Assembly (NCBI GenBank): GCA_009929375.1
Contig: SAAO01000009.1
Span: forward strand, 1-64,000
DNA from: Bacteroidia bacterium
GTDB lineage: Bacteria > Bacteroidota > Bacteroidia > Bacteroidales > Paludibacteraceae
Length of the DNA stretch: 64,000 bases
Reading direction: 5' to 3'
Every line of letters begins with the position of its first letter. Position 1 is the stretch's first letter. The notes below the pieces were generated by a model. It did not search any database, was not told the origin of the DNA, and was given only the letters and a program-made list of their open reading frames with translations. Below, in pieces: positions 42,773 through 55,300 of this stretch. The position numbers were made by a program, and so were the translations under genes.

Positions 42773-43699
42773 ATGAGAATTAATAAGATTGTTTTGGGTT
42801 ATTTGTTGATAATCAGTTTTGTAGTATCAGCTTGTCACCGCTCGGGCGACGATAATCAGTCGCAAAGCGATTCCACAATCTATGTGCGTGATTCGCTCAT
42901 ATTGCAAACCGAGCATCCAATGTTGATTGATTTTCGAATGTTTGTACACGATCTCGACAGTACGGATATGAATTCGGCAGCGCTTGCTGTGGATCATTTT
43001 CATAAGTTTTTCGAAGGGCAGCGACCCGGTCTGTGCGATTCTGCTTTTGTGGTTTTGCAGCAGTTGCTCGATACTATCGAAACCAACCTGAACGAGAAAC
43101 TTTACGAGGATAGTACCGATTATTCGCCACTGATGAACGGCGAAAATGTGAGTCCGAAGTTGAGTCGTTATCGTAATAATTTACTCAAAAGCGGTTTCAA
43201 AATGTCGTTTACCGAAGGTATGCCCTACATTGAACAGGACAGAGAGTTTGTGTTGCTGCAACTTTCCGATATGTTTACCGAACCGATGAAAGCTTATCTT
43301 GCACAAATTGAGCTCGAAAATCGCGAGGGATTTGCACAGGATGCCTTTATTACCATTGAACCTGAAAAATACATTGAGCGGCTTGTGTGGTACGAAAAAT
43401 TTATGGCTGCCAATAAAACCTTTGTTTTCCTGGATAATTGCAAAAACTATCGCAAGGCATATCTCACTTATCTGCTTTCGGGCATGGACAATTCGCCGCT
43501 TTACGATGATGTGGATCACCTGCAACTGGCTGAATATTATGCAAAAGCTTATACTTATTTGCTGAAAAAATATCCCGACAGCGAAACAGCCGGTCTGGTG
43601 CGCCCGTATTACGATGCTATTCGTAAAAAACAGAAAAGTGAAGTGAATGCCCTGTATAAAAAATACGTAGTGGGAGGTCATGTTTATAATTTCCAATAA
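42773..43699 (+). CDS. Lipoprotein of unknown function
   Basis: A 308-residue protein with a lipoprotein signal peptide (MRINKIVLGYLLIISFVVSA then Cys21). The mature part is mainly helical and acidic, with no repeated modules that I recognise (HDLDSTDMNSAALAVDHFHK, LDTIETNLNEKLYEDST, YAKAYTYLLKKYPDSETAGL). The last region resembles a TPR-like helix pair. It lies 165 bases after the LolC/E-like gene on the same strand. It would be carried to the outer membrane or remain on the inner membrane; I cannot assign a role. Confidence 0.65.
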   Translation: MRINKIVLGYLLIISFVVSACHRSGDDNQSQSDSTIYVRDSLILQTEHPMLIDFRMFVHDLDSTDMNSAALAVDHFHKFFEGQRPGLCDSAFVVLQQLLDTIETNLNEKLYEDSTDYSPLMNGENVSPKLSRYRNNLLKSGFKMSFTEGMPYIEQDREFVLLQLSDMFTEPMKAYLAQIELENREGFAQDAFITIEPEKYIERLVWYEKFMAANKTFVFLDNCKNYRKAYLTYLLSGMDNSPLYDDVDHLQLAEYYAKAYTYLLKKYPDSETAGLVRPYYDAIRKKQKSEVNALYKKYVVGGHVYNFQ

Positions 43700-43926
43700 A
43701 TCAGTATTGAATTTCATAGGTTGATAACTATCTTTGTAAAAAAACTAAGGCAGCATTCTGAAACATGGATGTTGTTCTGTTTGTGAAATTTCGGACAGAC
43801 ACAAGTCTGTTATTTGAAATTGATACTATAACATCTTGATTCAAAGAGCATATTGTTGATTGAACCCGGATTCTGTAATGTCAGTGATTTGATTTCAGAA
43901 TTATTAATCAATAAAAATATAATGCA
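43700..43926. other. Intergenic region before the methyltransferase gene
   Basis: No reading frame is seen in this 227-base stretch. It is AT-rich and has no evident terminator or promoter match. Confidence 0.3.
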
Positions 43927-44697
43927 ATGAGAGATGTGTTAGTAAATGTGTTTTTTCGCCTTTGGTACAAGGTTGTTTGTTTTGTGGATAAAAAGTCGCA
44001 GGTGACTTTTATGAATTATGGTTTTGCGTCGAAGGGACACGACATAGACCTGGAGCCTGCTGATATGCCCAATCTTTATCCGGCCAAATTGTATAATTAT
44101 TTAGTAACCAAAATTGATATTTCCGGAAAAAGTTTGATGGAAGTTGGCTGCGGTCGTGGTGGTGGTTTGTCGTATGTAAACCGTTATCTGAAACCCGCGT
44201 CGGCTACTGGTGTGGATCTCAACGACAAAGCTATTGAATTCTGTAAGCGCCATTACAGCCAGCAGAAAATGAACTTTTTTACCGGAAATGCCGAAATGCT
44301 TCAGTTCGATAATGCATCTTATGATGTGATTATCAATGTCGAATCCTCGCACCGTTATACCCGTTTCGATAAATTTCTGGCCGAGTCGTTTCGTGTTTTA
44401 AAACCCAAAGGGCATTTGTTGATTGTAGATTTCCGGTTTCGTCATCAGGTGGAATTGATGCACAGCCAGATTTTACAGTCCGATTTTGAGTTGAAAACAC
44501 GTGAAGTGATTACGCCTAATGTGGTGGAAGCACTTACTTTGTCGTCGGCTCAAACAAAAAAAATGATCAGCGAAATGGCTCCCAAATTTCTTCACGCTGC
44601 TGCCGGTCAGTTTGCCGGACTCGAAGGAACTTCTACTTTTAATAAGTTTGCAAATGGCGACTACGAGTATTTGCTTTATGTGTTGCATAAGAATTGA
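43927..44697 (+). CDS. Class I SAM-dependent methyltransferase
   Basis: A 256-residue enzyme that moves a methyl group from S-adenosylmethionine to an unknown acceptor. Motif I is MEVGCGRGGGLSYV, the acidic end of strand two is GVDLNDKAIEFC, motif II-like is GNAEMLQFDNASYDVIINVE, and FRVLKPKGHLLIVDF closes the core. The layout (NYGFAS... before motif I, SHRYTRFDKFLAE after it) resembles methyltransferases of lipid or polyketide tailoring such as the phthiotriol dimycocerosate type, but an assignment to a substrate is not possible. It is monocistronic between AT-rich spacers. Confidence 0.8.
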   Translation: MRDVLVNVFFRLWYKVVCFVDKKSQVTFMNYGFASKGHDIDLEPADMPNLYPAKLYNYLVTKIDISGKSLMEVGCGRGGGLSYVNRYLKPASATGVDLNDKAIEFCKRHYSQQKMNFFTGNAEMLQFDNASYDVIINVESSHRYTRFDKFLAESFRVLKPKGHLLIVDFRFRHQVELMHSQILQSDFELKTREVITPNVVEALTLSSAQTKKMISEMAPKFLHAAAGQFAGLEGTSTFNKFANGDYEYLLYVLHKN

Positions 44698-44781
44698 AAG
44701 TTCATAATTATTCTTTTTATATACCGTTTTAAATCAGCCAATAAAAAAAAGATTAAAAGGACAAAAATTGAATTTTGATGC

Positions 44782-44812
44782 TTGTTTGGTAGACAAAAAA
44801 GCAGTACTTTTG
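44782..44812 (+). promoter_or_regulatory. Promoter of the carAB fusion gene
   Basis: TTG at 44782-44784 and TACTTTTG at 44805-44812 are 20 bases apart, matching the Bacteroidota consensus. The start codon lies at 44884. I see no clear PyrR- or arginine-linked leader structure. Confidence 0.6.
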
Positions 44813-44883
44813 CAAAAATCCGGACATTTGAGTAGTCAAATGTTGCGGATAAATGAAGATATTCAAAATTCTATTTTATTTTT

Positions 44884-47800
44884 ATGCAAAAGTATAAGCC
44901 CTTTCATCTTGTTTTGGAAGACGGCACTGTGTTCGAAGGGAAATCCTTCGGTTTCGAAAAACCAGTGGCCGGTGAAGTAGTTTTTAATACGGCCATGGTC
45001 GGGTATCCCGAAAGCCTCACCGATCCATCTTATGCGGGTCAGCTGTTGGCAATCACATTCCCGTTGGTTGGTAATTACGGTGTTCCGAACGACACCATCG
45101 AAAACGGCCTTTCTACTTTTTATGAATCGGAAAAAATTCAGGCATCAGCTTTGATTATTTCCGATTTTTCTTTTGAATACAGTCACTGGAATGCTGTAAA
45201 AAGCCTGAGCGACTGGTTGAAAGAAAATGAAGTGCCCGGAATTTTTGGTGTGGACACGCGTGAGCTTACAAAACTTGTTCGCGAAAAGGGAACCATGCGC
45301 GGAAAACTTGTGTTTCCCGATGGCGATGATATCGAATTCGTTAATCCCGACGACGAAAATCAGGTGGCTAAAGTGAGCTGCAAAGAAGTAATTACTTACG
45401 GAAACGGTAGCAAACGCGTGTTGCTGGTGGATTGTGGCGTAAAACACAACATTATCCGCTGCCTGCTCAAACGCGACACTACAGTGATTCGTGTACCCTG
45501 GGATTACGATTATAATCACATAGAGTTCGATGGACTGTTTATCTCCAACGGTCCCGGCGACCCTGAATATGCGCAGGATACTGTGCGACATATTCAGGAA
45601 ACCATGAAAACCGGAAAACCTATTTTCGGTATTTGTATGGGAAATCAGTTACTTTCGGTAGCTGGTGGTGCTAAAACTTACAAACTGAAATACGGACACC
45701 GCAGTCATAACCAGCCTGTGCAGCTAGCCGGGACACAACGTGCCTTTATCACTTCACAGAATCACGGTTTTGCAGTGGATAATTCCACACTGAGCGCCGA
45801 TTGGGAACCACTTTTTGTAAATATGAACGATGGTACCAATGAAGGTATCCGTCACAAAACAATGCCCTGGTTCTCGGCTCAGTTCCACCCCGAGGCTGCT
45901 TCGGGACCTACCGATACTGAGTTTCTGTTCGATGTGTTCTTAAACCTCCTCAGAAGCCCCCTAAATCCCCCTTCAGGGGACTTTAAGATAGCTGACTTCG
46001 ATGTGGTTTCGATGATTGAAGAGGAATTGCAATCTAAAAAGGCGGCTGTAAATCAACCAAAGCTTCCCGAATTTTTGGAACGTGAAAAGTCCCCTGAAGG
46101 GGGATTTAGGGGGCTGGATGGTGTCGCTAAAGTTCTGGTACTTGGTTCGGGCGCTTTGAAAATTGGTGAAGCGGGTGAATTCGACTATTCGGGTTCGCAG
46201 GCTCTGAAAGCTCTGAAAGAAGAAGGCATTGAAACAGTGCTTATCAATCCGAACATTGCTACTGTACAAACTTCAGAAGGCATTGCCGATAAAGTATACT
46301 TCCTACCGGTTACGCCCGATTTTGTGGAACGTGTAATTGAAAAAGAGCGTCCCGATGGCGTTTTCCTATCGTTTGGCGGACAAACAGCGCTGAACTGTGG
46401 TGTGGCTCTTTACAAAGACAAAGTGTTCGAAAAATATGGTGTTCGCGTACTCGGGACGCCTGTACAATCGATTATTGATACCGAAGACCGTGAGATTTTC
46501 AATCGGAAACTTTCGGAAATCGATGTAAAATATATCAAAAGTGAAGCTGTTACTAATTACGAAGATGCAAAACGTGCAGCCAACGAACTGGGTTATCCGG
46601 TGATTGTGCGCGCGGCTTATGCGCTTGGTGGTTTGGGCTCGGGCTTCTGCGACAACGATGAAGAACTGAAAGCGATTGTGGACAAGGCATTTTCGTATTC
46701 GCCTCAGGTATTGGTCGAAAAATCGCTTAAAGGCTGGAAAGAAATTGAATACGAAGTGGTGCGCGACCGTTACGACAACTGTATTACGGTTTGTAACATG
46801 GAAAACTTCGATCCGCTGGGAATTCACACCGGCGAAAGTATCGTGGTGGCTCCTTCGCAAACGCTTACCAACAGCGAATATCACAAACTTCGTGAGCTTG
46901 CTATCCGCATTATCCGCCATATCGGAATTGTGGGCGAATGTAATGTGCAGTATGCGTTCGACACCGAATCGGAAGATTATCGTGTGATTGAGGTAAATGC
47001 CCGTTTGAGCCGTTCCTCAGCGCTGGCTTCGAAAGCCACGGGTTATCCGCTTGCATTTGTGGCTGCAAAACTTGGTTTGGGTTACGGACTTCCCGAATTG
47101 AAAAACTCGGTAACGAAAGATACTTCAGCATTCTTCGAACCGGCTCTCGACTATATCGTATGTAAAATTCCACGTTGGGATTTAGGTAAATTCCAGGGTG
47201 TAAGCCGCCTTTTGGGCTCCAGTATGAAGTCGGTGGGCGAAATTATGTCTATCGGTCGTACTTTCGAGGAAGCCATTCAGAAAGGAATCCGCATGACAGG
47301 ACTTGGAATGCATGGTTTTGTGGGTAATAAAGAACTTTTTGTGGATAATCTGGATAAAGCGCTGAACGAACCTACCGATCATCGTATTTTCTATCTGAAT
47401 CAGGCTTTTGAACTTGGTTATACGGTAGACAGACTTCACGAACTGACAAAAATTGACCGCTGGTTCCTGTATAAACTGGAACGCATCAAACAACTCGAAA
47501 AGGAACTTACTGCTACCGAATCGCTGGCTACACTTTCGGATGAATTGCTGAAAGAAGCCAAAGTGGCCGGTTTTTCCGACTTCCAGATCACACGCTTTGT
47601 GAGCAAATGCAGCAAAGACGATATGGATGAGCAGATAAAAGTGACCCGTGCACATCGAAAAAGTCGTGGAATTGTTCCGGTGGTTAAACAAATTGATACG
47701 CTCGCGGCAGAATATCCTGCACAAACCAACTATCTGTATCTTACTTACAGCGGTGTGGCCGGCGATATGAAATATCTGGGCGATCATCGTTCGGTAGTGG

Positions 47801-49329
47801 TGCTTGGTTCGGGTGCTTACCGCATTGGTTCGTCGGTGGAGTTCGACTGGTGTGGTGTAAATGCGCTTATGACCATTCGTAAAGAAGGACTTCGCTCGGT
47901 AATGATCAACTACAATCCCGAAACGGTTTCGACCGACTACGATATGTGCGACCGTCTGTACTTCGACGAGTTAAGCTTCGAACGTGTGATGGATATTATG
48001 GAACTCGAAAATCCAATGGGAACTATTGTTTCTACAGGAGGACAGATTCCGAATAACTTAGCCATGAAACTGGCCGATGCCAATGTAACCATTTTGGGAA
48101 CACAGGCTGTGGATATCGACCGCGCTGAAGACCGTCATAAATTCTCGTCGATGCTCGACGAGCTGGGAATTGACCAACCACGCTGGAAAGAGTTGACTAC
48201 TTTCGAAGATGTAAACGAATTTGTTGCCGAAGTGGGATTCCCTGTGTTAGTGCGCCCATCGTATGTACTTTCGGGTGCTGCCATGAATGTGTGTCACGAT
48301 GCTTCGCAATTGGAAAACTTCCTGAAATTAGCAACCGAAGTGTCGAAAAAGCACCCTGTGGTAGTATCGGAATTCCTCGAACGTTGCAAAGAAATTGAAA
48401 TTGATGCTGTTGCTCAGAATGGTGAGATCATGGTGTATGCCATTTCAGAACATGTGGAATTTGCAGGTGTTCACTCCGGTGATGCAACCACTCAATTCCC
48501 TCCGCAGAAAATTTATGTGGAAACCATTCGCCGTATTAAAAAGATTGCGGGAGAAATCGCACGTTCGCTGAATATCTCCGGACCATTCAACATACAATTC
48601 TTGGCTAAAGACAATTATATCAAGGTAATTGAATGTAACCTGCGCTCGTCGCGTTCGTTCCCATTCGTTTCCAAAGTGTTGAAATTGAACTTTATCGAAC
48701 TGGCCACCAAAGTAATGCTTGGCTTACCGGTTGAAAAACCTGAAAAATCAGCCTTCGACCTCGATTATGTCGGTATCAAAGCTTCGCAATTCTCATTCCA
48801 CCGTCTGCAACAGGCCGACCCTGTGTTAGGAGTGGATATGGCTTCGACAGGTGAAGTGGGCTGTATCGGCGACGATTTCCACGAAGCAATCCTGAAATCG
48901 CTGCTCTCGGTTGGTTTCCGCATTCCGAAGAAACGGATTCTGATTTCGTCGGGTGAGCCAAAATCGAAAGTAGAACTGCTCGATGCAACCCGTTTGCTTC
49001 AGAAAAAGGGTTATGAACTCTTTGCTACACGGGGTTCACAACGTTTCCTCAAAGAAAACGGAATTGAAGCCACAGCCGTAAACTGGCCCGATGAGGAAGG
49101 CGATTTGAATGTAAAAACCATGCTTTCGAACAAACAGTTCGATCTGGTAATCAACATACCGAAAAATACCACCGAACGTGAATTGCGTAACGACTACGCT
49201 ATTCGTCGTGGTGCTATCGACTTTAATATCCCGCTTTTGACCAATGCACGACTGGCTTCGGCCTTTATCACTGCATTTTGCAATATGACTGTGGAGGATA
49301 TTAAGATTAAAAGCTGGGACGAATATTGA
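44884..49329 (+). CDS. carAB: Carbamoyl-phosphate synthase, fused glutaminase (CarA) and synthase (CarB)
   Basis: A 1481-residue single chain that should make carbamoyl phosphate from glutamine, bicarbonate and two ATP for pyrimidine and arginine synthesis. Residues 1-350 are CarA: a small N-terminal domain (GKSFGFEKPVAGEVVFNTAM) and a class I glutaminase with Cys251 in FGICMGNQ and His335/Glu337 in QFHPEA. Residues 358-411 form a linker encoded by two inverted copies of a 29-nt GC-rich repeat. Residues about 413-1481 are CarB, with LGSGALKIGEAGEFDYSGSQ, two ATP-grasp halves (AAYALGGLGSG and ENFDPLGIHTGES in the first, RPSYVLSGAAMNV in the second), and an MGS-like allosteric domain ending IKIKSWDEY. 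Bacteria normally encode the two subunits as separate genes; the fused order matches eukaryotic CAD. The frame is unbroken. A second CarB follows at 49464. Confidence 0.93.
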   Translation: MQKYKPFHLVLEDGTVFEGKSFGFEKPVAGEVVFNTAMVGYPESLTDPSYAGQLLAITFPLVGNYGVPNDTIENGLSTFYESEKIQASALIISDFSFEYSHWNAVKSLSDWLKENEVPGIFGVDTRELTKLVREKGTMRGKLVFPDGDDIEFVNPDDENQVAKVSCKEVITYGNGSKRVLLVDCGVKHNIIRCLLKRDTTVIRVPWDYDYNHIEFDGLFISNGPGDPEYAQDTVRHIQETMKTGKPIFGICMGNQLLSVAGGAKTYKLKYGHRSHNQPVQLAGTQRAFITSQNHGFAVDNSTLSADWEPLFVNMNDGTNEGIRHKTMPWFSAQFHPEAASGPTDTEFLFDVFLNLLRSPLNPPSGDFKIADFDVVSMIEEELQSKKAAVNQPKLPEFLEREKSPEGGFRGLDGVAKVLVLGSGALKIGEAGEFDYSGSQALKALKEEGIETVLINPNIATVQTSEGIADKVYFLPVTPDFVERVIEKERPDGVFLSFGGQTALNCGVALYKDKVFEKYGVRVLGTPVQSIIDTEDREIFNRKLSEIDVKYIKSEAVTNYEDAKRAANELGYPVIVRAAYALGGLGSGFCDNDEELKAIVDKAFSYSPQVLVEKSLKGWKEIEYEVVRDRYDNCITVCNMENFDPLGIHTGESIVVAPSQTLTNSEYHKLRELAIRIIRHIGIVGECNVQYAFDTESEDYRVIEVNARLSRSSALASKATGYPLAFVAAKLGLGYGLPELKNSVTKDTSAFFEPALDYIVCKIPRWDLGKFQGVSRLLGSSMKSVGEIMSIGRTFEEAIQKGIRMTGLGMHGFVGNKELFVDNLDKALNEPTDHRIFYLNQAFELGYTVDRLHELTKIDRWFLYKLERIKQLEKELTATESLATLSDELLKEAKVAGFSDFQITRFVSKCSKDDMDEQIKVTRAHRKSRGIVPVVKQIDTLAAEYPAQTNYLYLTYSGVAGDMKYLGDHRSVVVLGSGAYRIGSSVEFDWCGVNALMTIRKEGLRSVMINYNPETVSTDYDMCDRLYFDELSFERVMDIMELENPMGTIVSTGGQIPNNLAMKLADANVTILGTQAVDIDRAEDRHKFSSMLDELGIDQPRWKELTTFEDVNEFVAEVGFPVLVRPSYVLSGAAMNVCHDASQLENFLKLATEVSKKHPVVVSEFLERCKEIEIDAVAQNGEIMVYAISEHVEFAGVHSGDATTQFPPQKIYVETIRRIKKIAGEIARSLNISGPFNIQFLAKDNYIKVIECNLRSSRSFPFVSKVLKLNFIELATKVMLGLPVEKPEKSAFDLDYVGIKASQFSFHRLQQADPVLGVDMASTGEVGCIGDDFHEAILKSLLSVGFRIPKKRILISSGEPKSKVELLDATRLLQKKGYELFATRGSQRFLKENGIEATAVNWPDEEGDLNVKTMLSNKQFDLVINIPKNTTERELRNDYAIRRGAIDFNIPLLTNARLASAFITAFCNMTVEDIKIKSWDEY
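45955..46115. repeat. 29-nt inverted repeat pair inside the carAB linker
   Basis: AGCCCCCTAAATCCCCCTTC with nine further bases (45955-45983) occurs again as its exact reverse complement at 46087-46115, with 103 bases between. Both copies are read in frame, giving SPLNPPSGDF and KSPEGGFRGL. The sequence belongs to the CCCCCTAAA type of intergenic repeat; a related copy is at 62570-62592. Confidence 0.92.
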
Positions 49330-49463
49330 TTTACAATTAAATCATTTACGATTTACAATTTCAGCAGAGACTCAAGGCATTGGGTCTCTGCTGAACGCGT
49401 AACCCGGAACGCGAAACCTGGAACGCGAAACCCTGAACAACAATAAAACTAAATATACAGAAA
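49330..49463 (+). repeat. Spacer with hairpin and GAAAC-type repeats between carAB and carB
   Basis: After TTTACAATT-type repeats (49330-49360) there is a perfect 11-base stem, TCAGCAGAGAC (49361-49371) and GTCTCTGCTGA (49384-49394), without a T tract. CGCGAAACCTGGAACGCGAA-like degenerate repeats follow (49396-49440). The same three-part arrangement follows the second carB gene. Confidence 0.75.
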
Positions 49464-52400
49464 ATGGATCAATCAATAAAGAAAGTGATTTTGCTCGGCT
49501 CGGGCGCACTTAAGATCGGTCAGGCCGGCGAATTTGACTATTCGGGCTCGCAGGCGCTGAAAGCATTGAAAGAAGAAGGTATCGAAACGGTATTGATTAA
49601 CCCCAATATCGCCACTATACAGACTTCGGAAGGCATTGCTGACAAAGTGTATTTCCTGCCCATTACGCCGCATTTTGTGGAAGAAGTAATTAAAAAAGAA
49701 AAACCTGATGGCATTTTGCTGGCTTTTGGCGGACAAACAGCGCTGAATTGTGGCACCGAAATGTACCTGGATGGCACTTTGCAGAAGTACGGTATTAAAG
49801 TGCTTGGTACATCGGTTGAAGCTATTATGATTACCGAAGACCGCGATTTGTTTGTAAAAAAACTAAACGAAATTGACGCCAAAACACCGGTTTCGCAGGC
49901 TGTGGAGTCGCTTACCGATGCCCTTACAGCTGCCCGTCGTATTGGCTATCCGGTAATGGTGCGCTCGGCTTATGCTTTGGGTGGGCTTGGTTCGGGCATT
50001 TGTGCCAACGAGCAGGAGTTTATTACACTTTGCGAAAGTGCTTTGGCTTATTCCAAACAAATTCTGGTTGAAGAAAGTCTCAAAGGCTGGAAAGAAATTG
50101 AATTTGAGGTGATTCGCGATAAAAACGACCATTGCTTCACGGTTGTTCCAATGGAAAACTTCGACCCGCTGGGTATTCATACCGGCGAAAGTATAGTGGT
50201 TGCACCCATTATTTCGCTTTCGAAAGATCAGATTGCATTTCTGGAAGATGTAGCGCGTAAAGTGGTTCGTCATATCGGAATTGTGGGCGAATGTAATATA
50301 CAGTATGCCTTTAATGCTGAAACAAACGATTATCGTATTATCGAAATCAATGCACGTCTGAGCCGCTCATCGGCACTGGCTTCGAAAGCTTCGGGTTATC
50401 CATTGGCTTTTGTGGCTACCAAGTTGGCTTTGGGCTACTCGCTCGATCAGATTGGTGAAATGGGAACGCTAAATTCGGCTTATGTGGCTCCTTCGGTGGA
50501 TTATATGATTGTGAAAATCCCACGTTGGGACCTTACCAAGTTCGAGGGTGTAAGCCGTGAAATTGGTTCGTCGATGAAGTCGGTGGGCGAAATTATGTCC
50601 ATTGGTCAGTCGTTCGAAGAAATTATTCAGAAAGGTTTGCGCATGATAGGACAGGGAATGCATGGTTTTGTGGGTAACAACGACCTTGTGTTCGACGATG
50701 TGGCTTCGGCGCTCTCAAAACCTACCGACCTGCGTATTTTTGCCATTGCCGACGCTTTTACCAAAGGCTTTACAGTGGAACAAATTGTGGATCTGACAAA
50801 AATCGACCGCTGGTTTATCGAAAAACTTGAAAATATACATAAATACAGCCTTGTGCTTTCGTCGTACAACAGTATTGCCGACCTTGATGCCAGTGTGCTT
50901 GCCGAAGCCAAACGCCTCGGTTTTTCCGATTTCCAGATTGCCCGTTTCGTCGAAACTCCTGCAGGCTCTATGGAAAAAGAATTGCTTCAGGTGCGCGACA
51001 AACGTAAATCAGTTGGTATTACACCCACAGTTCGTCGTATCAATACCGTAGCTTCCGATCACCCCGATAAAACCAATTATCTGTATTTTACTTACGGATC
51101 GGACAAGGCTTACAAGCCAGCCAAAGATGAGCGTGAAGCCATTGTGGTGCTTGGTTCGGGTGCTTATCGCATTGGGTCGTCGGTGGAATTCGACTGGTGT
51201 TCGGTCAATGCGGTTCAAACTGCCCGTGAACTTGGTTACGAGTCGGTAATGATCAACTACAATCCTGAAACCGTTTCGACCGACTATGATATGTGCGATC
51301 GTTTGTATTTCGATGAACTTTCGTTCGAACGTGTGTTGGATGTAATCGATATTGAGCAGCCCAAAGGTGTGATTGTGTCGATGGGCGGACAAATTCCAAA
51401 TAATCTGGCCATGAAACTCGACCGTCAGAATGTGCCTATTCTTGGTACACCTGCCGCTTCGATCGACCGCGCCGAGAACCGTCATAAATTCTCAGCCATG
51501 CTCGATACACTTGGTATCGATCAGCCACGCTGGAAAGAACTCAGCAGTTTCGAGGAAATTGATGCCTTTATCGACGAAGTTGGATTCCCGGTACTTATTC
51601 GTCCTTCGTATGTACTTTCGGGTGCAGCCATGAATGTATGTTTCGACAAGGAGCAGATGACAAAATTCCTGACGCTTGCTGCCAATGTATCGAAAGAATA
51701 TCCTGTGGTAGTTTCTTCGTTCCTGCAAAATGCCAAGGAAGTGGAATTCGATGCCGTAGCTCAGAATGGCGAAGTGGTGGAATATGCCATTTCGGAACAT
51801 GTGGAATTTGCCGGGGTACACTCGGGCGATGCTACGCTTGTGTTTCCGGCTCAGAAAATTTATTTCGAAACAATGCGCCGCATTAAAAAGATTTCGAAAC
51901 AAATTGCCCGTGAACTCAATATCTCAGGGCCTTTTAATATTCAGTTCTTAGCCAAAAACAACGATATCAAAGTAATTGAATGTAACCTGCGTGCTTCGCG
52001 TTCGTTCCCTTTTGTGTCGAAAGTGCTGAAACGTAATTTTATTGAAACAGCTACCCGCATTATGCTTGATGCGCCATACAGTCGTCCCGATTCGTCGGTA
52101 TTCGACCTTGAACATATTGGTGTAAAGGCTTCGCAGTTCTCTTTTGCCCGTTTGCAAAATGCCGACCCGATTTTAGGTGTGGACATGTCGTCGACTGGTG
52201 AAGTAGGTTGCATTGGCGACGATTTCAGAGAGGCATTGCTTAAATCGATGCTGTCGGTAGGTTACAATATACCGGGAAAAAACATTTTGGTATCGTCGGG
52301 TGAAGCGAAATCGAAAGTGGATTTGCTCGAAGCCTGTCACATGCTTCACGACAATGGTTATAATATCTACAGCACTTCAGGTACAGCTGCATTCCTAAAT

Positions 52401-52676
52401 GATAACGGTATTAAAGCAATACCTGTGGCCTGGCCCGATGAGGAAGGCGAACTTCAGATAATGGAAATGCTCAACAAAAAGCAAATCGATCTGGTGATCA
52501 ATATTCCGAAAAATCAAACCCGTCGTGAACTGACCAACGGTTACAAAATCCGTCGTGCGGCCATCGATTATAATATTCCATTGTTGACCAATGCGCGACT
52601 TGCGTCTGCATTTATATATGCTTTCAGCACCCTCAGTCTCGACGATATTAAGATTAAAAGCTGGGACGAATATTGA
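49464..52676 (+). CDS. carB: Carbamoyl-phosphate synthase large subunit, second copy
   Basis: A 1070-residue stand-alone synthase subunit. It starts MDQSIKKVILLGSGALKIGQ and is similar along its length to the CarB half of the fused protein, including both ATP-grasp halves (SAYALGGLGSG, ENFDPLGIHTGES, RPSYVLSGAAMNV) and the MGS-like end IKIKSWDEY. Catalytic motifs look intact. It has no glutaminase domain and no second carA is in the window, so it must pair with a CarA elsewhere, borrow the fused one, or use free ammonia. The copies differ mainly in the allosteric region and linker surfaces, which might allow separate control by pyrimidines and arginine; that is inference. It lies 134 bases after carAB and may be in the same transcript. 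Confidence 0.93.
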   Translation: MDQSIKKVILLGSGALKIGQAGEFDYSGSQALKALKEEGIETVLINPNIATIQTSEGIADKVYFLPITPHFVEEVIKKEKPDGILLAFGGQTALNCGTEMYLDGTLQKYGIKVLGTSVEAIMITEDRDLFVKKLNEIDAKTPVSQAVESLTDALTAARRIGYPVMVRSAYALGGLGSGICANEQEFITLCESALAYSKQILVEESLKGWKEIEFEVIRDKNDHCFTVVPMENFDPLGIHTGESIVVAPIISLSKDQIAFLEDVARKVVRHIGIVGECNIQYAFNAETNDYRIIEINARLSRSSALASKASGYPLAFVATKLALGYSLDQIGEMGTLNSAYVAPSVDYMIVKIPRWDLTKFEGVSREIGSSMKSVGEIMSIGQSFEEIIQKGLRMIGQGMHGFVGNNDLVFDDVASALSKPTDLRIFAIADAFTKGFTVEQIVDLTKIDRWFIEKLENIHKYSLVLSSYNSIADLDASVLAEAKRLGFSDFQIARFVETPAGSMEKELLQVRDKRKSVGITPTVRRINTVASDHPDKTNYLYFTYGSDKAYKPAKDEREAIVVLGSGAYRIGSSVEFDWCSVNAVQTARELGYESVMINYNPETVSTDYDMCDRLYFDELSFERVLDVIDIEQPKGVIVSMGGQIPNNLAMKLDRQNVPILGTPAASIDRAENRHKFSAMLDTLGIDQPRWKELSSFEEIDAFIDEVGFPVLIRPSYVLSGAAMNVCFDKEQMTKFLTLAANVSKEYPVVVSSFLQNAKEVEFDAVAQNGEVVEYAISEHVEFAGVHSGDATLVFPAQKIYFETMRRIKKISKQIARELNISGPFNIQFLAKNNDIKVIECNLRASRSFPFVSKVLKRNFIETATRIMLDAPYSRPDSSVFDLEHIGVKASQFSFARLQNADPILGVDMSSTGEVGCIGDDFREALLKSMLSVGYNIPGKNILVSSGEAKSKVDLLEACHMLHDNGYNIYSTSGTAAFLNDNGIKAIPVAWPDEEGELQIMEMLNKKQIDLVINIPKNQTRRELTNGYKIRRAAIDYNIPLLTNARLASAFIYAFSTLSLDDIKIKSWDEY

Positions 52677-52949
52677 TTTTATTTACAATTTAATCATTTA
52701 CAATTTACAATTTTTATTAGAGGCGCAAGACATTGCGTCTCTAATAATATTGAACCCTGGGCTGTAAATAAGACAAAAGACAAAAGACTGTGTTGAGCAT
52801 GAAACATTGCGAATCAACTTCTGAATGCTCAATACGAAACGCTAAACCCTGAAACTTTGAAACCCTGAAACCCTGAAACTCTGAAACTCTGAAACCCTGA
52901 AACTTCAAAATGCTAAAAATAGTTTAAATAAGTTTTTAAATAATAATAA
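52677..52949 (+). repeat. Spacer with TACAATTTA units, a hairpin and GAAACCC repeats
   Basis: The spacer repeats the layout of the carAB-carB gap. It has TTTACAATTTA-type units (52680-52710) and a 15-base stem with one G-U pair (TTATTAGAGGCGCAA at 52714-52728 against 52733-52747). Degenerate GACAAAAGACAAAAGACTG and GAAACCCTGAAACTCTGAAA units follow (52768-52910). No reading frame is evident. Confidence 0.75.
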
Positions 52950-53126
52950 TTCCGTTCGGAAAGTATTTCACAAATAATTTGTCGTTTCTTTGTCCTCCGA
53001 AAAAGGATATTGTATATTTTCGTCAGTCTGTTCACAACTTATCCGCATTTATGCGCACTTTGTTCCCCGCCTACGTAATTACACTTCGCTTTCTCATTAT
53101 TATTTATTTTTACACATTATTTTTTT
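52950..53126 (+). promoter_or_regulatory. Long leader of the RNA-binding protein gene
   Basis: The region carries the palindrome TTCCG-TT-CGGAA (52950-52961), a weak -7-like TTTCTTTG at 52985-52992, and then a C/T-rich leader of about 130 bases up to the start codon. Long pyrimidine-rich leaders are common for cold-shock-like RNA-binding proteins and may be self-regulated; the latter is inference. Confidence 0.35.
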
Positions 53127-53372
53127 ATGAACATCTACGTAGGTAACTTAAGTTACAAAGTAAAAGAAAACGACCTTAGAGCCGTTATGGAAGAGTATGG
53201 TCAGGTTGACTCATGCAAGATTATCACCGATCGCGACACACGCAAATCAAAAGGCTTCGCTTTCGTTGAAATGGCTGACGATGCTGCTGCCCGTACTGCT
53301 ATCACCGAACTTAACGGTGCTGAATACGACGGTCGCACAATGGTATTGAAAGAAGCTACTCCAAGAAGCTAA
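53127..53372 (+). CDS. RRM-domain RNA-binding protein
   Basis: An 81-residue protein that is one RNA recognition motif. RNP2 is IYVGNL at residues 2-7, and RNP1 is SKGFAFVEM near residue 41. The aromatic residues that stack on RNA bases are in place (Tyr3, Phe43, Phe45). Single-RRM proteins of this size are common in Bacteroidota and cyanobacteria and bind single-stranded RNA as chaperones or regulators. It has its own long leader and a strong terminator. Confidence 0.93.
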   Translation: MNIYVGNLSYKVKENDLRAVMEEYGQVDSCKIITDRDTRKSKGFAFVEMADDAAARTAITELNGAEYDGRTMVLKEATPRS

Positions 53373-53395
53373 TTCAAAACCCAAGCAAAAAACAA

Positions 53396-53432
53396 AACAA
53401 CCCTGTTGGTATTATACCGACAGGGTTGTTTC
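53396..53432 (+). terminator. Terminator of the RRM gene
   Basis: AACAACCCTGTTGGT (53396-53410) pairs with ACCGACAGGGTTGTT (53416-53430) with one G-U pair. Confidence 0.88.
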
Positions 53433-53437
53433 GTTTA
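53417..53437. repeat. Direct repeat, left copy
   Basis: CCGACAGGGTTGTTTCGTTT plus one base recurs at 54002-54023 with two differences (one an inserted base). The two copies enclose the 42-bp tandem array. Confidence 0.6.
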
Positions 53438-53616
53438 CAGACTTTTCCTCTTTTGAATCGACCAATTATTATTTCTGCTTTGCGTAATGCTATAAAATAC
53501 CCGACTGACTGTCTCAAAGCAGCGAAAATTATACAAACAGCAAAATAAATCTGCTAATAACGCATTACTATACTACTAAAAACGTATTACTCTATAACTA
53601 ATAATATGGAGCGTTT

Positions 53617-53836
53617 CTACATTGAGTATAATGATTCGTGTAAAAAGCATGAATTTCTCTACATTGAGTATAATCAATCGTGTAAAAAGCATGAATCTTT
53701 CTACATTGAGTATAATGATTCATGTAAAAAGCATGAATTTCTCTACATTAAGTATAATCAATCATGTAAAAAGCAGGAATTATTCTACATTAAGTATAAT
53801 GATTCGTGTAAAAAGTATAATGAATTCTACCTAAGT
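53617..53836. repeat. 42-bp tandem repeat array
   Basis: A unit starting CTACATTGAGTATAAT begins at 53617, 53659, 53701, 53743, 53785 and 53827, an exact 42-base period with five full copies and a partial sixth. Alternate units differ (GATTCGTG or GATTCATG versus CAATCGTG or CAATCATG), so there is also an 84-base superperiod. Because 42 is a multiple of three, more than one frame is open. The frame from ATG 53606 to 53842 would encode 78 residues of (F/L)YIEYN(D/Q)SCKKHE repeats. I cannot tell whether it is translated or acts as DNA or RNA. There are no distinct spacers, so it is not a CRISPR. Confidence 0.8.
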
Positions 53837-53980
53837 GTATGAATTTGCCTTGCTGCTTCTCTGTTTGGCATGTGTCTTCGCTATGTCAGAGTTAAAAGGA
53901 AAGCTTTTCTTTCCATATTTAATCATTTAGCGACTAAGTTTTTTTTTTAGAATATGCCAGACAGAGGCAGGCTTTTGCTA

Positions 53981-54004
53981 CGGCATAGGCCTGAGCCTAT
54001 GCCG
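53981..54004. repeat. Perfect palindromic hairpin
   Basis: CGGCATAGGC (53981-53990) pairs with GCCTATGCCG (53995-54004) around CTGA. It sits 36 bases beyond the stop codon of the DUF3472 gene, which is on the minus strand, and could serve as its terminator even though the following tract is not T-rich. Confidence 0.6.
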
Positions 54005-54023
54005 AACAAGGTTGTTTCGTTTA
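54002..54023. repeat. Direct repeat, right copy
   Basis: CCGAACAAGGTTGTTTCGTT plus two bases matches 53417-53437 in 20 of 21 aligned bases, allowing one inserted base. Confidence 0.6.
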
Positions 54024-54040
54024 TGTAAGTTGTAGTTTAC

Positions 54041-55300
54041 TTATTTGAAGTCGGCCAGATTGATATCCGGTTTTGTAAAAGATTTCAGACTTTTGAATTT
54101 GGTGCGGTATGTGGTGTTTTGATCAAAGAAACCACCCATTTTCAGAAAGAAACCTTTTTTGGTAACACCACCGGCATAGTCGAAACGGCGTTGTGCGTGT
54201 GCTGTGGCATCGTAAGTGAATGTGGCTTCGGTTACAGGATACCAGTTGCCTTTGCTGTCGGCTACCCACTGATTGCTGTAGTTGGCCATGCGTGTTTTGT
54301 CGCCCTGATCGGGGATGAAGTTTTCGAGGAATGAGTGAAAGCGCTTCAGGTAAGTGTTTGTTTTCGGGCGTTTGAACGAAGCCATAAGCATCCACTGTTT
54401 GGTTGCGGGGTCGTGAAACCATGCTGTGTAAGTGGTATTGTTTTTACCGTCGGGGACGCCGCGCAATAAAAATCCGTAGCGCACGCCGGCTTTCCAGGGG
54501 AAACGCATAAAACTTTGTCCGCCGGAACCTTCGTTTCCAAATTCACCTGAATTTACTTTTTCACCTTTTTTGAGCAGTACAATTTTTTCTTCGTCGGGAA
54601 TGGCGTTCGGATCGTCGGTATGAAAGGGACTCCATACTGAAAACAATACGCGGCGTTCGGTAGGCGAATTTACCTGTATGCCAAAATATCCTTCGCCAAA
54701 ACCATTGGCCATATAATACGAACCAATTTGATCCTGACCTTTGGGAACTTCAATTTCGGAATAATACCATTCGGTTTCAGATATGTTTTCGGGAATCGTA
54801 TAAGCTAAATGTACCGAAGGACCGCGACGCCCAAAGTATGTGTTCTCCTGGTCGATGAATTTTACAAGTGTGGCATCGCCTGCTAACAAAACATTTTGAA
54901 GATTGCCATAGCTGCTTCCGCTACGCTTTTTACCCTGTATTGTCATTTTGTAATGACCGGCTTTTTTGAAGTTGATTTCGCCAAGTTCAATTTTTGAACC
55001 GGAGGCACTCACCTGTTTCAGAAATGTTTTACCAGCCACTTTAATTTTCAGTTCAGCAGTCTGACTGGCTTCCATTTCGATAGCTACAGGCAGCTTGCAG
55101 GCTTTTGTAATGTAAAAATAGAGGTTGATTATTTGTTCGGGATTGCTCCATTGTTCCATTTTACCGGAACGTAATACGGCTTTGGTACTTTCGTTGTTGG
55201 CCCAGGCATTGCTGCGTACCGGAATTGAAATGTTGTAACTGCCTTGTGCCAATAGCAATAAGGGCAGTAGAAGTAGGATTGAGAGAAGTGTTTTTTTCAT
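54041..55300 (-). CDS. DUF3472-domain secreted protein
   Basis: A 419-residue exported protein with a signal peptide (MKKTLLSILLLLPLLLLAQ). The N-terminal part (about residues 25-150) is a carbohydrate-binding-like beta module of the DUF5077 kind, with INLYFYITKACKLPVAIEME and KIELGEINFKKAGHYKMTIQ. The C-terminal DUF3472 part has WYYSEIEVPKGQDQIGSYYM, YFGIQVNSPTERRVLFSVWS and the GFFLKMGGFF ending. Such proteins occur in polysaccharide-use loci of Bacteroidota but no activity is settled. It is divergent from the GH16 gene, and they share one promoter region. Confidence 0.83.
   Translation of the reverse strand: MKKTLLSILLLLPLLLLAQGSYNISIPVRSNAWANNESTKAVLRSGKMEQWSNPEQIINLYFYITKACKLPVAIEMEASQTAELKIKVAGKTFLKQVSASGSKIELGEINFKKAGHYKMTIQGKKRSGSSYGNLQNVLLAGDATLVKFIDQENTYFGRRGPSVHLAYTIPENISETEWYYSEIEVPKGQDQIGSYYMANGFGEGYFGIQVNSPTERRVLFSVWSPFHTDDPNAIPDEEKIVLLKKGEKVNSGEFGNEGSGGQSFMRFPWKAGVRYGFLLRGVPDGKNNTTYTAWFHDPATKQWMLMASFKRPKTNTYLKRFHSFLENFIPDQGDKTRMANYSNQWVADSKGNWYPVTEATFTYDATAHAQRRFDYAGGVTKKGFFLKMGGFFDQNTTYRTKFKSLKSFTKPDINLADFK

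What the first reader, a model, noticed from the sequence alone, without database searches (positions are those of the whole stretch)
44884..49329. CarA and CarB fused in one bacterial protein with CAD-like sequence
An unbroken 1481-codon frame joins a complete glutaminase (Cys251, His335, Glu337) to a complete synthase. Bacteria normally encode separate carA and carB; a GATase-synthase fusion is characteristic of eukaryotic CAD. Several blocks also read like CAD (from memory): TSQNHGFAVDNSTLSADWEP, DGTNEGIRHK, NARLSRSSALASKATGYPLA, GIHTGESIVVAPSQTL. This may bear on the origin of the eukaryotic enzyme or be convergent fusion.
Basis: partly seen in the sequence, partly recalled or inferred. 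Interest (0 to 1): 0.75.

Follow-up and report, generated by a model that had tools for sequence, protein, structure and literature searches.

The report
Fused bacterial carbamoyl-phosphate synthase
A bacterium of the Bacteroidales makes the two parts of an ordinary metabolic enzyme as one protein, as animals do; the join is real, but it arose separately inside this group of bacteria, and the likeness to the animal enzyme is shared by close relatives that keep the two parts apart.

Summary
Window 44884-49329 is one open frame of 1481 codons joining a complete glutaminase (CarA) to a complete synthase (CarB), and is the genome's only CarA. A second, free CarB follows at 49464-52676. At least 52 of 200 genomes of the family carry the fusion, as does a complete Petrimonas genome.

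Both halves resemble human CPS1 more than E. coli CarAB, but unfused Bacteroidales and Ignavibacteria relatives do so equally (CarB median 53.4% fused, 53.6% separate, 39.4% ordinary). CPS1 and these bacteria form one clade, rooted by CarB's internal duplication. Fused genes are nested among separate ones, need at least 8 changes on the tree, and grouping the main fused clade with CPS1 is rejected. The fusion is convergent. Only one eukaryotic sequence was available.

Beyond the finding: the linker holds a dispersed palindromic repeat in frame; two relatives have fused enzymes with the glutaminase triad lost, a possible bacterial parallel to CPS I; the regulatory domain has CPS1's N-acetylglutamate-pocket tryptophan where ordinary CarB has lysine. 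Fused bacterial CPS is mentioned in print; the rest was not found in ten searches of one library.

The parts
44884..49329 (+). fused carA-carB gene, 1481 aa, single-chain carbamoyl-phosphate synthase
44884..45951 (+). CarA (glutaminase) part, residues 1-356
   Evidence: TIGR01368 residues 8-356; PF00988 and PF00117
45634..45894 (+). catalytic Cys251 (codon 45634-45636), His335 (45886-45888) and Glu337 (45892-45894)
   Evidence: translation; triad kept in 220 of 225 bacterial CarA; roles recalled
45952..46122 (+). inter-domain linker, residues 357-413, longer than in most congeners
   Evidence: in the model, low confidence at 361-365 and 395-410, helix 374-387
45955..45984 (+). left arm of a perfect 30-base inverted repeat, read in frame as part of the linker
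46086..46115 (+). right arm of the same inverted repeat
46123..49326 (+). CarB (synthase) part, residues 414-1481, two ATP-grasp halves
   Evidence: TIGR01369 residues 414-1464; ATP-site residues intact
48973..49242 (+). MGS-like allosteric domain, residues 1364-1453, with Trp at the CPS1 Trp1410 position
   Evidence: PF02142; alignments
49464..52676 (+). second, free-standing carB (CarB2), 1070 aa, 66% identical to the fused CarB

Best explanation
The gene encodes a working glutamine-dependent carbamoyl-phosphate synthase whose glutaminase and synthase are one chain. The CarA part releases ammonia from glutamine with Cys251, His335 and Glu337. It docks on the N-terminal half of CarB as in CPS1. 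Ammonia then passes inside the protein to two ATP-grasp sites that make carbamoyl phosphate for pyrimidines and arginine. The chain arose by loss of the stop codon between neighbouring carA and carB genes, inside the Bacteroidales, and this happened several times. The likeness to the eukaryotic enzyme is older than the fusion and belongs to a whole clade of CarAB (Bacteroidales plus Ignavibacteria) that shares an ancestor with eukaryotic CPS. Shown here: the frame, the intact residues, the tree, the scatter of fusion. Predicted: the docking. Inferred: that fusion and not splitting was the direction, activity, ammonia channelling, metabolic use.
For: Families over cut-off on both halves. Only CarA in the genome. 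Sixteen ATP-site residues identical in 266 of 266 aligned CarB rows, CPS1 and E. coli included. The predicted structure of residues 1-964 (pLDDT 86, pTM 0.87) superposes on ligand-bound human CPS1 over 971 columns, both domains together, TM 0.91, rmsd 2.4; 0.83 on the apo form. Fused genes nested among separate ones: 8 changes at least among 204 rows, all 8 forced by starred branches; the 40 Bacteroidales-side rows that branch before the 154-row group with all 63 fused genes are separate. CPS1 outside the bacterial group at 97/94, ordinary CarB apart at 100/100. The clade holds with the root set by CarB's internal duplication, 100/99 and 100/100. CPS1 with the main fused clade rejected. Fused and separate equally like CPS1.
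Against: No activity or expression data. The docking comes from a predictor that has probably seen CPS1, so it is weak as an independent test. The tree of fused states is FastTree on a sample enriched for fused loci. Changes of state cannot tell fusion from splitting. Only one eukaryotic sequence, on a long branch; its place outside rather than inside the bacterial group is weakly supported: alternatives are rejected only at p 0.022 and 0.045, the N-half tree has it outside at 98/84 and the C-half tree inside at 89/69. No Archaea or Cyanobacteria were sampled. Two rows labelled with other lineages (L171 of family f134, L079 'Chlorobiota') branch among Bacteroidales.
Confidence: 0.86

Rival explanations
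1. The fused bacterial gene is the ancestor or donor of the fused eukaryotic CPS (CAD, CPS1).
For: Both are fused, and both halves are closer to human CPS1 than to E. coli CarAB.
Against: Unfused relatives are equally close; fused genes are nested late and scattered; grouping with CPS1 rejected; all 12 rows of the f134/Ignavibacteria loci checked are separate genes.
Confidence: 0.03
2. The bacterial clade received its CarAB from a eukaryote, already fused, and later split it by a stop codon between the halves; today's fused genes are partly remnants.
For: The eukaryotic enzymes are fused (recalled; shown here for CPS1). Most other Bacteroidota sampled carry a different CarB. In many fetched loci carA and carB sit in one frame with a single stop between them.
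Against: In the even sample, same frame in 10 of 22 adjacent separate pairs, or 11 of 23 with G011, is no clear excess over one third (p 0.16 and 0.11). CPS1 falls outside the bacterial members in the concatenated tree. The early bacterial branches are separate.
Confidence: 0.1
3. Division of labour: the fused enzyme feeds one pathway and the free CarB2 next to it feeds the other, using ammonia or borrowing the fused glutaminase.
For: CarB2 is intact. Ten of eleven rows labelled CarB2 form one group at 100; the eleventh, L214, falls elsewhere and was not counted as CarB2 later. CarB2 occurs in 7 of 60 genomes of the order and lies directly behind carA-carB1 in three loci, the window, L051 and L215. 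G059 and G218 show CarB2 but no CarA.
Against: The two window copies have the same residues at the ATP and ornithine sites and nearly the same in the MGS site, so nothing in the sequence separates the roles; CarA may be missing from G059 and G218 through assembly gaps.
Confidence: 0.35
4. Artefact: a missed stop or frameshift, or a decaying gene.
For: None found.
Against: The open frame recurs in at least 52 of 200 genomes of the family, including a single-contig genome; catalytic residues kept.
Confidence: 0.01

Closest known systems
Human CPS1 (5dot, 5dou), the fused eukaryotic CPS I
   Same: GATase-synthase in one chain; 50.6% identity in CarA and 53.8% in CarB; same predicted docking; Trp and Pro at 1410-1411
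   Different: CPS1 has Ser for the glutaminase Cys and uses ammonia (recalled); the window has Cys251. Q1368, R1371, K1444 and N1449 of the N-acetylglutamate site differ
Eukaryotic CAD / CPS II
   Same: fused GATase and synthase with intact glutaminase (recalled)
   Different: no dihydroorotase or aspartate carbamoyltransferase domain in the window protein; no CAD sequence was at hand to compare
E. coli CarA plus CarB
   Same: same domains; ATP-site residues identical
   Different: two genes; 40% (CarA) and 43% (CarB N half) identity; Lys and not Trp in the MGS site
Separate CarA and CarB of other Bacteroidales (Bacteroides ihuae, L042)
   Same: same clade, 70% (CarA) and 77% (CarB) identity
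   Different: a stop codon between the two genes
Fused bacterial CPS II named in the review PMC6022934
   Different: the passages read name no bacterium with the fusion and give no phylogeny or count

Membership tests
Glutamine-hydrolysing CPS (TIGR01368 + TIGR01369) | both subunit models over their curated cut-offs | tested here: met
   440 against 307 bits and 1515 against 1027 bits
Glutamine-hydrolysing CPS (TIGR01368 + TIGR01369) | Cys-His-Glu triad in CarA and both ATP sites in CarB | tested here: met
   roles of residues recalled from the E. coli enzyme
Glutamine-hydrolysing CPS (TIGR01368 + TIGR01369) | makes carbamoyl phosphate from glutamine | not testable with these tools
   needs an assay
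CAD | dihydroorotase and aspartate carbamoyltransferase domains behind the synthase (recalled) | tested here: not met
   no such domain among the 13 Pfam families matched; the chain ends with the MGS domain
CAD | descent with eukaryotic fused CPS, apart from unfused bacterial genes | tested here: not met
   with human CPS1 as the only eukaryote
CPS I (ammonia-dependent) | glutaminase Cys replaced | tested here: not met
   the window keeps Cys251; two fused relatives, G109 and G142, have lost it
CPS I (ammonia-dependent) | N-acetylglutamate pocket (T1391, T1394, W1410, N1437, P1439, T1443, N1449) | tested here: inconclusive
   window: T, S, W, N, P, T, D; six of seven kept or conservative, N1449 not; Arg1371, whose change impairs NAG response in CPS1, is not Arg here (contacts from passages of PMC4655335)

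The most novel reading that the evidence does not exclude
Bacteroidales have repeated the path of the animal enzyme: carA and carB fused several times by stop loss, and in two relatives (G109, G142) the fused glutaminase then lost its triad while the synthase stayed intact, giving a bacterial counterpart of ammonia-dependent CPS I. Most of the clade carries the CPS1-type tryptophan in its regulatory domain, so it may be switched by an N-acylglutamate, most likely the N-succinylglutamate with which Bacteroidetes begin arginine synthesis, and not by UMP and ornithine. If so, acylglutamate control of CPS is older than the urea cycle.
Probability: 0.2. Interest if true: 0.75.

Novelty: new member of a known kind. 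Interest (0 to 1): 0.42.

Why it matters
Where the fused eukaryotic CPS came from is an old question, and the usual outgroups (E. coli, Bacillus) are far away. A bacterial clade at 50-55% identity, with both separate and fused members, is a closer outgroup and shows that carA-carB fusion comes easily and says little about descent. The two glutaminase-dead relatives may be a natural repeat of the CPS III to CPS I change. The regulatory domain gives a simple test of whether acylglutamate control predates the urea cycle.

Tried and rejected
Same-frame excess as a sign of gene splitting: 10 of 22 adjacent separate pairs in the sample are in one frame, p 0.16 against one third; 11 of 23 with G011, p 0.11; dropped. 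Over all fetched CarB1 loci same-frame pairs dominate, but that set was chosen by similarity and by long open frames. The 'open_frame_aa' column of the genome searches was first taken as fusion (note); one search showed that it reads through stops, and fusion was then called only from an unbroken match or from fetched DNA. First structure prediction with 44 close homologues was poor (pLDDT 66) and was not used; the second replaced it. Promoter and terminator scan: 12 and 5 sites, no more than in shuffles. Rfam: nothing at gathering threshold in 43600-54100. The repeat pattern CCCCCTAAATCCCCC reads the same backwards, so the built-in control is no control. Whether G109 and G142 lost the triad once or twice: tree unresolved. 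The test of CPS1 with all seven fused rows (p 2.5e-57) says little, because the fused rows are no single group themselves; the five-row test is the fair one. Ten paper searches (two of them empty) listed no paper whose title or abstract start shows a report of fused CarAB in Bacteroidales, of its kinship with eukaryotic CPS, or of glutaminase-dead bacterial fusions; the library lacks most subscription journals.

Rows dropped: copies of the window (L001, L002, L003, L005, L170), rows of 850 aa or less, and 18 identical rows (222 to 204). CarB pieces of 700 aa or less were not used (for example L198). The tally of CarA triads was not thinned of near-copies; some loci occur twice under two ids (for example L035 and L123).

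Full report
OBSERVATION. Window 44884-49329 (+) is one open frame of 1481 codons. Residues 8-356 match the small-subunit model TIGR01368 and residues 414-1464 the large-subunit model TIGR01369, both over cut-off. Pfam shows CPSase_sm_chain, GATase, two pre-ATP-grasp and two ATP-grasp stretches, the oligomerisation domain and the MGS domain; its other matches are general models of the same folds. Cys251, His335 and Glu337 are present. The own genome has no other CarA. Downstream, after 134 bases, lies a second CarB of 1070 residues, 66% identical to the fused one.

IS THE FRAME REAL? Yes. In a search of 200 genomes of the family, the own one included, 37 give one unbroken match across the junction, five of them cut by contig ends. 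DNA fetched from others confirmed 15 more, so at least 52 of 200; of the 20 family loci fetched, 14 were fused and 6 separate. Of 34 genomes of the window's genus listed, 28 show an unbroken match across the junction, contig-end pieces included; the other six are absent, fragmentary or not in the shown part of the list. One of the 28, G060, is a single contig of 3,685,504 bases, which by my recollection is the length of the Paludibacter propionicigenes WB4 genome. The complete genome of Petrimonas sp. IBARAKI has the fusion too (L098). In an even sample of 60 genomes of the order, one a family, 2 have it (G000 and G002; G020, cut by a contig end in the search, was fetched and is separate), so it is a minority form in the order.

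IS THE LIKENESS TO THE ANIMAL ENZYME TIED TO THE FUSION? No. Human CPS1 is the best match among solved structures by sequence for both halves: 406 bits against 247 for E. coli in CarA, 829 against 657 in the N half of CarB and 649 against 489 in the C half. But blastp of CPS1 gives the same values for fused and separate genes: CarB median 53.4% (67 fused), 53.6% (154 separate), 39.4% (28 ordinary); CarA median 50.8% (68 fused), 49.6% (144 separate), 36.7% (11 ordinary). In an even sample of 118 genomes of the phylum, 14 carry this kind of CarB: the own genome, G658 of the same class, and 12 of family f134 (56-68% identity). Of 61 plasmid records with a CarB match, five, from Bacteroides, Phocaeicola and Parabacteroides, are above 60%.

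TREES. A CarB tree of 62 rows and a concatenated CarA+CarB tree of 36 rows both set CPS1, Bacteroidales and Ignavibacteria apart from the ordinary CarB rows (100; 100/100). With the root set by the internal duplication of CarB, the group is a clade in both halves (100/99 and 100/100). The ordinary rows come from Fusobacteriota, Bacillota, Pseudomonadota, Actinomycetota and other Bacteroidota; no Archaea or Cyanobacteria. In the concatenated tree CPS1 stands outside all the bacterial members at 97/94. Placing it with the Bacteroidales block (p 0.022) or with Ignavibacteria (p 0.045) is only weakly rejected; the N-half tree has it outside at 98/84, the C-half tree inside at 89/69. Its exact place is open. 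Grouping CPS1 with the main fused clade (five rows) is rejected at p 6.4e-6; with all seven fused rows at p 2.5e-57, but those seven are no single group themselves. On 204 distinct CarB rows (63 fused, 141 separate) the fused state needs at least 8 changes, all 8 forced by starred branches, and all 63 fused rows lie in one 154-row part of the Bacteroidales that also holds 91 separate ones. The sample is enriched for fused loci, so 8 is no rate. Two rows with other labels, L171 (f134) and L079 ('Chlorobiota'), fall among Bacteroidales. In many separate loci only one stop lies between carA and carB in the same frame (8 of 20 adjacent pairs among the loci), so a fusion can need only one point change. 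In the even sample same-frame pairs are not in clear excess (10 of 22, p 0.16; 11 of 23 with G011, p 0.11), so there is no sign of past splitting.

HOW IT WORKS. The predicted structure of residues 1-964 (pLDDT 86, pTM 0.87) matches ligand-bound human CPS1 over 971 columns with TM 0.91 and rmsd 2.4, glutaminase and synthase half together, and the apo form at 0.83; the E. coli subunits, being separate chains, match one part each. The predictor has probably seen CPS1, so this shows that the window chain fits that arrangement, not that it was found independently. The linker is modelled with low confidence except for one helix at 374-387. The 16 ATP-site residues compared (positions recalled) are identical in 266 of 266 rows, window CarB2 and CPS1 included. 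I infer a normal glutamine-dependent CPS with ammonia passed inside one chain.

REGULATORY DOMAIN. At the position of CPS1 Trp1410, which contacts N-acetylglutamate (PMC4655335, passages read), Trp stands in 204 of 222 CarB1 rows (3 gaps) and 14 of 15 CarB2, and in none of 27 ordinary rows (24 Lys, 3 gaps). T1391, T1394 (T or S), N1437, P1439 and T1443 (T or S) are also kept in most CarB1 rows, but T1391, T1394 and N1437 are kept in ordinary CarB as well and P1439 in 16 of 27. Against the idea: N1449 is Asn in no bacterial row of the listed counts, and Arg1371, whose change impairs the NAG response of CPS1, is mostly Ser or Gln. E. coli's Glu892 of the ornithine site (recalled) is Ala. Bacteroidetes make arginine through N-succinylglutamate (PMC7311316, passages read). 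An acylglutamate sensor is thus possible, not shown.

A POSSIBLE BACTERIAL PARALLEL TO CPS I. Of 225 bacterial CarA sequences (near-copies included) 220 keep Cys-His-Glu. Two fused proteins do not: L243 (G109: Gly, Ser, Ile) and L242 (G142: Asn, Ser, Glu). G109 is 99% complete and shows no other CarA. Their CarB halves are intact. In G109 the CarA half has drifted: dN 0.233 to its congener G081 against 0.062 between G129 and G081, while CarB gives 0.108 against 0.075. In G142 there is no such special drift: CarA 0.292 to G074 against 0.194 between G103 and G074, CarB 0.148 against 0.087. dS is saturated throughout. In each genus (by GTDB code) the other members whose CarA I compared keep the triad (G081, G129, G146; G074, G103). 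The tree does not say whether this is one loss or two. Three separate CarA (L085, L087, L104) are also altered at the triad. These are sequence results; ammonia dependence is inferred.

THE LINKER. By the same anchors, 18 of 23 other loci of the genus measured have a linker stretch of 45 residues; the window has 70. The extra residues come from a perfect 30-base inverted repeat. The same palindrome is dispersed in these genomes. Of 20 places fetched, chosen in part because pairs showed, 16 hold an inverted pair, 98-154 bases across (157 in the window), and 13 of these 16 are spanned by no open frame; the four other places in the window's own genome are single copies. By eye, several other fused genes carry similar insertions in the linker (L115, L116, L117, L120, L221). 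So a REP-like element seems to have entered a tolerant spot, in frame, after the fusion.

NOVELTY. A 2018 review already says that bacterial CPS II can be a single fused peptide (PMC6022934, passages read). The window gene is a new member of that kind. I found no paper on the clade's kinship with eukaryotic CPS, the recurrent fusion, or the glutaminase-dead fusions in ten searches of one open library. A paper on eukaryotic CPS phylogeny (PMC7542463, passages read) has no word beginning with 'bacteroid' in its main text.

Noticed in passing
45955-45984 and 46086-46115: Perfect 30-base inverted repeat inside the coding linker, of the same family as dispersed, mostly intergenic palindrome pairs in genomes of the same genus; read in frame as SPLNPPSGDF and SPEGGFRGL.
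   Followed up: partly
L243 (G109), L242 (G142): Fused CarA-CarB proteins with the glutaminase triad lost and the synthase intact, possibly ammonia-dependent like CPS I.
   Followed up: partly
49464-52676: Second CarB (CarB2) directly behind the fused gene; also directly behind carA-carB1 in L051 (Proteiniphilum) and L215 (G129); in 7 of 60 genomes of the order. G059 and G218 show CarB2 but no CarA.
   Followed up: partly
L006 (G002): A genome of another family has a fused carAB whose CarB is 93% identical to the window's, while its family mates G416, G496 and G319 are at 75-76%: transfer or a mixed bin.
   Followed up: no
residue 589 of the fused protein (46648-46650): The Cys in GSGFC may be the oxygen-reactive CarB Cys180 reported for B. 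thetaiotaomicron (PMC13252398, passages read); matched by motif and rough position only.
   Followed up: no
49393-49438 and 52836-52904: Short tandem repeats of 14 and 8 bases behind each of the two synthase genes.
   Followed up: no
53614-53815: Tandem repeat, period 42, 4.8 copies, 88% matches.
   Followed up: no
L085, L087, L104: Separate CarA proteins with changed catalytic residues in three Bacteroidales genomes.
   Followed up: no
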